This document shows positions 51,882 through 53,659 of a stretch of 64,000 nt of DNA, in pieces (positions within the stretch are counted from its first letter, which is position 1; each line of letters starts with the position of its first letter). The DNA comes from Legionella jamestowniensis. GTDB taxonomy: Bacteria; Pseudomonadota; Gammaproteobacteria; Legionellales; Legionellaceae. Made by a program: the position numbers and the translations under genes. Under the pieces are notes generated by a model. The model saw only the letters and a list, made by a program, of their open reading frames with translations, was not told where the DNA came from and searched no databases. The stretch is taken from the NCBI RefSeq assembly GCF_001467745.1, contig NZ_LNYG01000008.1, forward strand, positions 87,612 through 151,611, read 5' to 3'.

Positions 51882-52622
51882 TTAGTTATCTAAAACACGC
51901 ATCGATTTTGCTTTTATGTTCATCATTCGCCATTGAGTAGGCGAGATGCCATACATTTGGTGAAAGCGTCGGCTAAAGGCAGATAAATTTTCATATCCGA
52001 CTTGGTAAGCAATCTCTTCAATACACAGGTTGCTATTAATAAGCAATTGCTGCGCGTATTCTAATTTTTTTAGCCGCCAATACTCTGCCAGAGTAAAACC
52101 GGTATTCAGCTTAAAACGGCGTTGAAGCTGGCTTTTACTCAAATAACAGTGTCTGGCTAACCGGTCAATGTCAACCGGTGTTGCCAAGTGCTTATCCATC
52201 CAGCTTTTTGCAAGAACCACAGAACGATCAGTTGTCCAATCAACGGGAAGAAGACTCATCAAAAGTTGATAAAGCGACAAATCTGCCAAATGATTTGAAT
52301 AATTCTCCAAATAGCAATGGGCAAATTCAAGATACTTTTTTAAGGCGGGATTTAAATTTAAAAAAGAAGGTAGTTTGTGAGTCTTCCACTCTGTACAAGT
52401 GTCAGGAAGGTCAACAACCAGGAATAAATTATCTTCGCTGCTAGCAAAACAGTGCCTTGTGTCGGCTCGAACATAAGCAGCGGTCTCTTCATCAACAAGC
52501 CCAGCTTCTCCACCAGTTTCAAGTTCAAGCCGGCCTTTGAGAGGTAAAACTAATTGTGAAAAATCATGGGAATGGCTACACGTTTCTTTTGTATAAGATC
52601 GCAAGGAAAAAAGAACAGACAT
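51882..52622 (-). CDS. AraC family transcriptional regulator
   Basis: The 246-residue regulator has an N-terminal cupin-like sensing domain (HDFSQLVLPLKGRLELETGG) and a C-terminal AraC DNA-binding domain with two helix-turn-helix units (ARHCYLSKSQLQRRFKLNTG; IEEIAYQVGYENLSAFSRRF, then HQMYGISPTQWR). It precedes the EamA transporter in one minus-strand unit and lies about 100 bases from the divergent small-RNA promoter. It could act on either, which is inference. Confidence 0.93.
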   Translation of the reverse strand: MSVLFSLRSYTKETCSHSHDFSQLVLPLKGRLELETGGEAGLVDEETAAYVRADTRHCFASSEDNLFLVVDLPDTCTEWKTHKLPSFLNLNPALKKYLEFAHCYLENYSNHLADLSLYQLLMSLLPVDWTTDRSVVLAKSWMDKHLATPVDIDRLARHCYLSKSQLQRRFKLNTGFTLAEYWRLKKLEYAQQLLINSNLCIEEIAYQVGYENLSAFSRRFHQMYGISPTQWRMMNIKAKSMRVLDN

Positions 52623-52725: not shown

Positions 52726-52753
52726 TTGACAGTTTCTGTATATTTTCTATACT
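52726..52753 (+). promoter_or_regulatory. Sigma-70-like promoter of the small RNA
   Basis: TTGACA (52726-52731) and TATACT (52748-52753) are separated by 16 bases. Transcription would begin about 52759-52762. It is one of the best sigma-70 matches in the window and points into the structured RNA, not into a protein gene. Confidence 0.75.
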
Positions 52754-52759
52754 TAAAGT

Positions 52760-52831
52760 GTAGGTTGAATATTAGAGCCCACGTTGTTGGGAGCTAAGTT
52801 TAACCTCTCCACCTTCGGGTGGATTTTTTTT
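52760..52831 (+). ncRNA. Candidate structured small RNA of about 72 nt
   Basis: An independent transcription unit: a consensus promoter at 52726-52753 and a textbook terminator (TCCACC, TTCG loop, GGTGGA, then eight T, 52808-52831). Between them, arms 52762-52769 and 52799-52806 pair completely (one G-U). Inside, TTAG (72-75) pairs with CTAA (94-97) and CCCA (78-81) with TGGG (88-91), separated by a symmetric AG/AG internal loop and closed by a CGTTGT loop. No ORF is seen. I do not recognise an Rfam family. A regulatory sRNA is the simplest reading. Confidence 0.75.
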
Positions 52832-52999
52832 ATCTGTTGTTATCTTTAAAAAGACAAAACTCCTTCCTTCTATCCTATTTCTTATCCCTTGGGTACTGTT
52901 ACTAAACACCCTTCAATTGTTCAAGAAATCGTGGCGAAAAATCAGAGCAATATCAAACCATTTTGAATTAGTTTAACAGCGTCATCTTGCATAAATTAC

Positions 53000-53079
53000 C
53001 GTGATTCTGAGCAAAGCGACCTTCTGAGGGACGAAAGGCAGTGTAAAATTTGGAATTCTTCACTATGTTCAGAATGACG
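53000..53079. repeat. Palindromic intergenic repeat, third type/copy
   Basis: CGTGATTCTGAGCAAAGCGA (53000-53019) and TTCACTATGTTCAGAATGACG (53059-53079) are near-complementary over 21 bases. The right arm resembles the CACTACGTTCGA-type arms at 9203-9310 and 15163-15279. It is non-coding. Confidence 0.65.
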
Positions 53080-53263
53080 TTTTTCTTACGTCCTGAAAGC
53101 AGCGCAGCTGCTTGACGAATCTCTAATAGATAAAATCCCGCTCTTAAACGAAGAGATCCTTGTTTCTAATTTAGAGAAAGTATGATTTTGCCTTAATTAA
53201 ATTGAAATCAGCGACTAGATGTGTAATTGTGTTACAAAGATTGTTCAGTCTCATGGAGGAAGT

Positions 53264-53659
53264 ATGGATTCCCATGATTTGCTAAAGGAAATAGATGCAC
53301 TTGTTAGGAGTTATGACTGGACTAAAGAGGTGCGTTTTAATTGGCTACGCAATGTTGGAAAAACACTGGTTTTTTTTAAAAACCCTGAGTATGCATTGGA
53401 GTTTAATGCTTTAAATCAAGAGGAATCTTTATCCCCCAGAGGCATTCTGGCAATTAATTGTTTGCTTAACCAAAACTGTGCAAATGAAATAAAAATTGCT
53501 GGTATTAAAAAAATTTTGCGAGATAAAGGGTATAATGGAGAGGATGAAGAGAAGAGTGGCCTAAGAACAGATATCACGCATACAGTTTATGGGCAGTTGG
53601 CAAGAATGATTGCTAACTATGAAAAAAATGAAAGTTGCTATATCCCAATAAAGTTTTAG
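53264..53659 (+). CDS. Hypothetical protein
   Basis: The ORF from ATG 53264 (GGAGG 4 bases upstream; an in-frame ATG at 53219 has none) encodes 131 residues starting MDSHDLLKEIDALVRSYDWT. It is soluble, mixed-charge and helical, with no family that I recognise. The neighbour gene at 53760 starts about 100 bases later on the same strand and is also unknown. A type IV effector cannot be excluded. Confidence 0.65.
   Translation: MDSHDLLKEIDALVRSYDWTKEVRFNWLRNVGKTLVFFKNPEYALEFNALNQEESLSPRGILAINCLLNQNCANEIKIAGIKKILRDKGYNGEDEEKSGLRTDITHTVYGQLARMIANYEKNESCYIPIKF

What the first reader, a model, noticed from the sequence alone, without database searches (positions are those of the whole stretch)
52726..52831. 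Candidate new small RNA with promoter, nested stem and UUCG terminator
A stretch of about 105 bases with no ORF combines a near-consensus sigma-70 promoter, an outer 8-bp helix, an inner stem with a symmetric AG/AG internal loop, and a terminator stem with a UUCG loop and eight T. Every element is visible in the sequence, and the outer arms flank the inner stem exactly. I do not recognise a known RNA family. The loop CGTTGT and the unpaired A/G positions could be contact sites.
Basis: partly seen in the sequence, partly recalled or inferred. Interest (0 to 1): 0.8.

Follow-up and report, generated by a model that had tools for sequence, protein, structure and literature searches.

The report
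Dispersed two-hairpin Legionella small RNA
The stretch is very probably a real small RNA gene, one of an apparently undescribed family of short two-hairpin RNAs in Legionella relatives whose fold is kept while its letters change; what it does is still unknown.

Summary
At 52726-52831 there is a promoter (TTGACA, 16 nt, TATACT), an RNA starting near 52760 with a hairpin on its first nucleotides, and a UUCG terminator with eight T. It folds far better than shuffles (z -4.56) and matches no Rfam family. It is one of a dispersed family: a model without the hairpin's pairs finds 52 places in 29 of 143 Legionellaceae genomes at E<=0.001. Of 30 examined members not used for the model, 28 have a 5' domain with z<-2. 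Five genomes keep it at the same place beside an AraC-type gene; in four aligned copies 3 of 8 outer pairs changed on both sides, all in one sequence. Five members, on four probable plasmids, lie directly before intact ligD genes; the window copy is free-standing. Best reading: a structured small RNA with a stationary-phase-type promoter, of the kind bound by ProQ/FinO chaperones (the genome has two). The gene is well supported; partner and targets are inferred.

The parts
52726..52731 (+). -35 hexamer TTGACA
   Evidence: A 5-of-6 or better -35 recurs in 37 of 46 members examined, at spacing 16-17 (29 of 46 exact), although it lies outside the model that found them
52747..52759 (+). extended -10 and start region CTATACTTAAAGT (TATACT at 52748-52753), sigma-S-like by recall
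   Evidence: C, T and A at the first three positions in 46 of 46 members examined (partly by construction, see full report)
52760..52831 (+). predicted small RNA, about 72 nt
   Evidence: fold z -4.56; R1 match 78 bits, the window being one of the 16 model sequences; 5' end inferred, not measured
52762..52806 (+). 5' hairpin: outer helix 52762-52770/52798-52806, inner helices, loop CGTTGT 52782-52787
   Evidence: compensatory changes in the outer helix
52808..52831 (+). intrinsic terminator: 6-bp stem, UUCG loop, eight U
51882..52622 (-). divergent AraC-type regulator, the syntenic neighbour in the 5 ortholog loci
   Evidence: Pfam HTH_18/HTH_AraC; synteny
53202..53231 (+). promoter-like block TTGAAATCA...TGTGTAATTGTG before the downstream gene, similar in the 5 ortholog loci, suggesting that this gene has its own promoter
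   Evidence: read by eye (L202-L205, L207); coordinates checked
53264..53659 (+). downstream gene of unknown function (131 aa from this ATG), followed by a 258-aa ORF; both are in the 5 ortholog loci
   Evidence: (no Pfam match for either)

Best explanation
52726-52831 is a free-standing small non-coding RNA gene of a dispersed Legionellaceae family. Shown by sequence: a promoter with consensus -35 and extended -10 CTATACTTAAAGTG, a hairpin closing on the first nucleotides of the RNA, and a terminator, kept in synteny in 5 genomes and with some compensatory changes. Inferred: transcription starts at about 52760 and is strongest in stationary phase, because the -10 resembles the sigma-S type. 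Inferred: the RNA is stabilised by its paired 5' end and by a ProQ/FinO-domain chaperone on the terminator and U tail. Inferred: it acts after transcription, the 5' hairpin being the variable working module and the terminator the constant chaperone handle, as in RocR. My estimates: small RNA gene about 0.9; chaperone-client mechanism about 0.4; the confidence given is for the whole.
For: Fold z -4.56, 0 of 200 shuffles as stable. Same place (AraC-type gene on one side, the same two ORFs on the other) in 5 genomes. Outer helix: 31 of 32 cells paired and 3 of 8 pairs changed on both sides; 3 of 500 shuffles as high, slid versions lower (4 sequences). 30 members not used for the model: 28 with z<-2, 28 closing at nucleotide 1-3, median z -3.85. 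A -35 outside the model in 37 of 46. CTATACTTAAA occurs 11 times in the own genome against 2 for the reversed control, and 6 of the other 10 sites have an ORF of 79 aa or more starting 21-50 nt downstream. Two ProQ-family genes in the own genome. [quoted passage not shown]
Against: No expression or binding data. No conserved unpaired seed in the 5 orthologs. RocC prefers a 5-nt tail and binds RocR nearly exclusively (PMC9674577 and PMC9977716, passages), whereas the window has eight T. The 3 double changes all come from one sequence, one outer pair is broken in L071, and one of the 5 orthologs (L063) was left out of that count because its helix is in a shifted register. A sixth copy beside the AraC-type gene (G077, L218) has lost the fold (z -1.23). 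One genome (G043) has both neighbours and no R1 match between them. The AraC-type gene has matches in 51 of 143 genomes, so most genomes with it lack the element beside it.
Confidence: 0.5

Rival explanations
1. It is a cis-acting leader: the promoter drives the downstream gene and the terminator attenuates it.
For: In five members (L143, L150, L155, L156, L158) an intact ligD starts 34-40 nt after the terminator stem on the same strand, leaving little room for another promoter, so ligD would be reached by read-through there (Pfam LigD for L143). Two further copies stand 34-39 nt before the start of broken or truncated ligD genes (L134, L151).
Against: No sign of an antiterminator: pairing of the 5' domain with the terminator's 5' arm is no better than for shuffled domains (mean z +0.45 over 46; for L160, L161 and L163 that script set the tail wrongly). 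In the window the next gene starts 432 nt after the terminator and has its own promoter-like block. Of the 30 ligD loci that handed out, 3 hold an R1 match and 27 none up to E 1.
Confidence: 0.15
2. It is a CsrA-type protein sponge (RsmY/RsmZ/CsrB-like).
For: GGA occurs in the first 45 nt of 21 of 46 members.
Against: GGA is open in the predicted fold in only 7 of 46 members, not in the window RNA.
Confidence: 0.05
3. It is a trans-acting base-pairing small RNA with a species-specific target that does not use a ProQ-type chaperone.
For: Discrete gene with its own promoter and terminator; apical loops of the family vary as they would if targets differ.
Against: No conserved single-stranded seed in the orthologs, most nucleotides paired; 16 of 46 members have a GNRA tetraloop, which suggests a loop chosen for stability. 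No target search was made: the genome was not available as a file.
Confidence: 0.25
4. It is a small mobile or relic repeat (left behind by lost ligD copies) without function.
For: Copies lie at many unrelated loci and on probable plasmids; L145 carries the element plus a ligD-like start, read by eye, before a catalase gene; the G077 copy has decayed.
Against: Hairpins kept under sequence change; -35 kept outside the searched part.
Confidence: 0.07

Closest known systems
RocR / RocRp (RocC-dependent small RNAs of Legionella)
   Same: Length class (66 nt against about 72), a 5' stem-loop and a 3' terminator with pyrimidine tail; related RNAs also on plasmids (passages of PMC7973641, PMC9674577, PMC9977716, PMC11472951).
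   Different: RocR has one antisense loop for several com mRNAs; this family has no common loop. Identity of sequence could not be tested: the RocR sequence was not in the passages read.
lpr0001/lpr0069 ncRNA family of L. pneumophila (PMC3048289, abstract and sections 9, 10, 13 read)
   Same: Multi-copy Legionella RNA family with a stable consensus fold.
   Different: 20 sequences of high homology in one genome, against at most 5 matches per genome here and strongly diverged middles.
FinP and other FinO/ProQ-bound terminator RNAs
   Same: Stem-loops ending in a terminator with U tail (FinP's plan recalled; FinO-family passages of PMC9977716).
   Different: FinP is a cis-antisense RNA of traJ on F plasmids (recalled); no gene of 60 aa or more lies opposite the window RNA.

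Membership tests
RocR/RocRp | 5' stem-loop plus 3' terminator with U tail, about 66 nt | tested here: met
RocR/RocRp | 6-nt antisense sequence to RocR boxes of com mRNAs | not testable with these tools
   RocR sequence not in the passages read; members share no common apical loop
RocR/RocRp | bound by RocC, about 5-nt tail | tested here: inconclusive
   eight T in the window; two ProQ-family genes in the genome; no binding data
lpr0001/lpr0069 | about 20 similar copies in one genome | tested here: not met
   one match at E<=0.001 in the own genome, at most 5 in any of 143
lpr0001/lpr0069 | sequence and structure of the published members | not tested
   sequences not held in the paper's text
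Rfam 15 families | match at gathering score | tested here: not met
   window: none; 20 loci: none; 4 further loci: only group II intron matches away from the element; best sub-threshold match in the window stretch E 0.4
leader attenuator | terminator in the 5' UTR of the next gene with an alternative antiterminator | tested here: not met
   432-nt gap with own promoter-like block in the window; no antiterminator signal
CsrA sponge | exposed GGA motifs | tested here: not met
   7 of 46 members, not the window

The most novel reading that the evidence does not exclude
A family of small RNA cassettes shared by chromosomes and plasmids in which selection keeps only the fold of the 5' hairpin, with constant promoter and terminator: RNAs that act by shape, as decoys that occupy and titrate a ProQ/FinO-type chaperone in stationary phase, with plasmid copies using the same lever on the host.
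Probability: 0.12. Interest if true: 0.75.

Novelty: new variant of a known kind. Interest (0 to 1): 0.5.

Why it matters
An RNA family with about 50 places in one bacterial family, a defined promoter type and strong structure would give a ready set of candidates for the open question what the second, minimal ProQ protein of Legionella binds (its function is called unknown in PMC9977716, passages). It also links a small RNA element to DNA-repair ligase genes on probable plasmids. It shows how a plain sequence search can hide such families, since the middle has almost no conserved letters.

Tried and rejected
Rfam at gathering and permissive thresholds: nothing on the element. Viral contigs: 0 matches of the pattern. 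Plasmid collection: no match of the L143 element; for the window RNA only partial matches of 24-31 bases at E 0.2-0.7 in 5 records of other genera. CsrA sponge and antitermination: not supported. Two weak R1 matches elsewhere in the own genome (E 0.045 and 0.094) do not fold into the family's 5' hairpin and were not counted. The order-level search covered 143 genomes, the same number and handles as the family-level one, and added no lineage outside the family. In the one-per-species collection the only 5 matches are Legionella, but the tool says that records near the window's genome may be left out. Literature: searches listed no paper that I recognised as describing this family; only the held open-licence library was searched, and of most listed papers I saw the listing alone. 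For PMC3048289 I saw the abstract and sections 9, 10 and 13; for PMC9674577, PMC11472951, PMC9977716 and PMC7973641 passages only. The sigma-S likeness of CTATACTTAA, FinP's role and the CsrA-sponge class are recalled, not from a call.

Full report
Observation. The sequence at 52726-52831 was read directly and its coordinates rechecked. The promoter TTGACA-16-TATACT matches 11 of 12 consensus letters. No Rfam family matches. No listed ORF of 60 aa or more overlaps it.

Orthologs. A DNA search of 140 family genomes gave matches in 7 at E<=0.001, own genome included: close copies in two others (89% and 79%) and shorter matches that share the promoter or the terminator. In an alignment of four of them (L063 left out because its helix is in a shifted register) 31 of 32 outer-helix cells pair, and 3 of 8 outer pairs changed on both sides, 3 of 500 shuffles as high (not a probability, as the tool notes); all three changes are in L062, and one pair is broken in L071. 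A sixth place beside the AraC-type gene, in G077, scores weakly and no longer folds this way. G043 has both neighbours and no R1 match between them. The AraC-type gene has matches in 51 of 143 genomes at E<=1e-30 and the downstream gene in 14 of 143 at E<=1e-8, so the element is either young in this neighbourhood or often lost (inference).

Family. The pattern CTATAMTWWAARTG-N30-60-CCACCYTCGGGTGG has 16 places in 12 of 143 genomes, none for the reversed control, and in the one-per-species collection 5 contigs, all Legionella: L. brunensis, L. rubrilucens, L. gresilensis, L. erythra and a MAG. From these 16 places I built model R1 with only the terminator stem as structure. It matches 42 of 143 genomes at E<=0.1, and 52 places in 29 of 143 at E<=0.001. 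I examined 46 of those 52; six weaker ones were not fetched. In the 16, the promoter and terminator letters are conserved by construction; the 5' hairpin is not.

Independent tests. Of the 16 training members 15 have a 5' domain with z<=-2.5 (the 16th, L057, has -0.51). Of the 30 others 28 have z<-2 and 28 close at nucleotide 1-3, median z -3.85. L147 (-1.31) and L168 (-1.11) fail the z test; L160 and L161 fail the closing test, where the script cut the domain short (in the longer fold L160 closes at nucleotide 1, L161 does not). L168 has no family promoter and is probably not a member. Some of the 30 are close relatives of training members (L139, L152, L153) and L156/L158 share the same element, so they are not 30 independent cases. 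The -35 lies outside R1, yet 29 of 46 have TTGACA and 37 of 46 at least 5 of 6 letters, at spacing 16 or 17. In the group L143-L156 (6 sequences) one pair alternates A-U and G-C, 3 and 3, with 54 of 54 cells paired (26 of 500 shuffles reach the covariation score, weak on its own).

Context. Members lie at many unrelated loci. Besides the window's group, L137/L141/L152/L153 and L135/L139/L144 are syntenic among relatives, as are the pairs L160/L161 and L165/L171. Five lie just before intact ligD genes (L143, L150, L155, L156, L158), whose ATG comes 34-40 nt after the terminator stem (Pfam scan for the first). Their four contigs, of 79-204 kb, are probably plasmids because they are second or third contigs of genomes in 2 or 3 contigs (inference). 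Of the 30 ligD loci that handed out, from matches in 76 genomes, 3 hold an R1 match and 27 none up to E 1 (two of the 30 are cut by contig ends). L145 has the element and a ligD-like start, read by eye, before a catalase gene. In the window the downstream gene begins 432 nt after the terminator and has its own promoter-like block (by eye), so the copy is probably free-standing.

Mechanism. The -10 CTATACTTAAA is a recurrent promoter-like motif in the own genome: 11 sites against 2 for the reversed control, 6 of the other 10 with an ORF of 79 aa or more starting 21-50 nt downstream. Its likeness to sigma-S promoters is recalled. No antiterminator signal (mean z +0.45) and few open GGA motifs (7 of 46) were found; apical loops differ, and 16 of 46 are GNRA (three rows there have the tail set wrongly). 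A nearly fully paired RNA with a terminator tail is what FinO-domain chaperones bind, RocR being the Legionella example (passages), and the own genome has two such proteins. Hence my choice of a chaperone-bound structured small RNA; binding, targets and timing are inferred.

Verdict. A real small RNA gene (about 0.9), of a family not in Rfam and not found in the library searched. Its mode of action is open.

Noticed in passing
52930-53110: The intergenic stretch after the RNA holds pieces of a dispersed repeat: 10 further partial matches (78-100% identity) elsewhere in the own genome.
   Followed up: partly
L143, L150, L156, L158 near 6001; L155 near 1591: The element stands directly before intact ligD genes on probable plasmids, ATG 34-40 nt after the terminator stem; 27 of 30 ligD loci searched lack it.
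   Followed up: partly
L145 5934-6097: The element followed by a ligD-like start stands before a catalase gene, as if a ligD leader had been copied or left behind.
   Followed up: no
G083:C1:2037246 and 2042596: Two copies of the AraC-type gene about 5 kb apart.
   Followed up: no
L143 7733-7809 and 9728-9873: Group II intron matches near the ligD-linked member on a probable plasmid.
   Followed up: no
53202-53231: A promoter-like block TTGAAATCA...TGTGTAATTGTG is similar before the downstream gene in the five ortholog loci, with looser forms in some others (by eye).
   Followed up: partly
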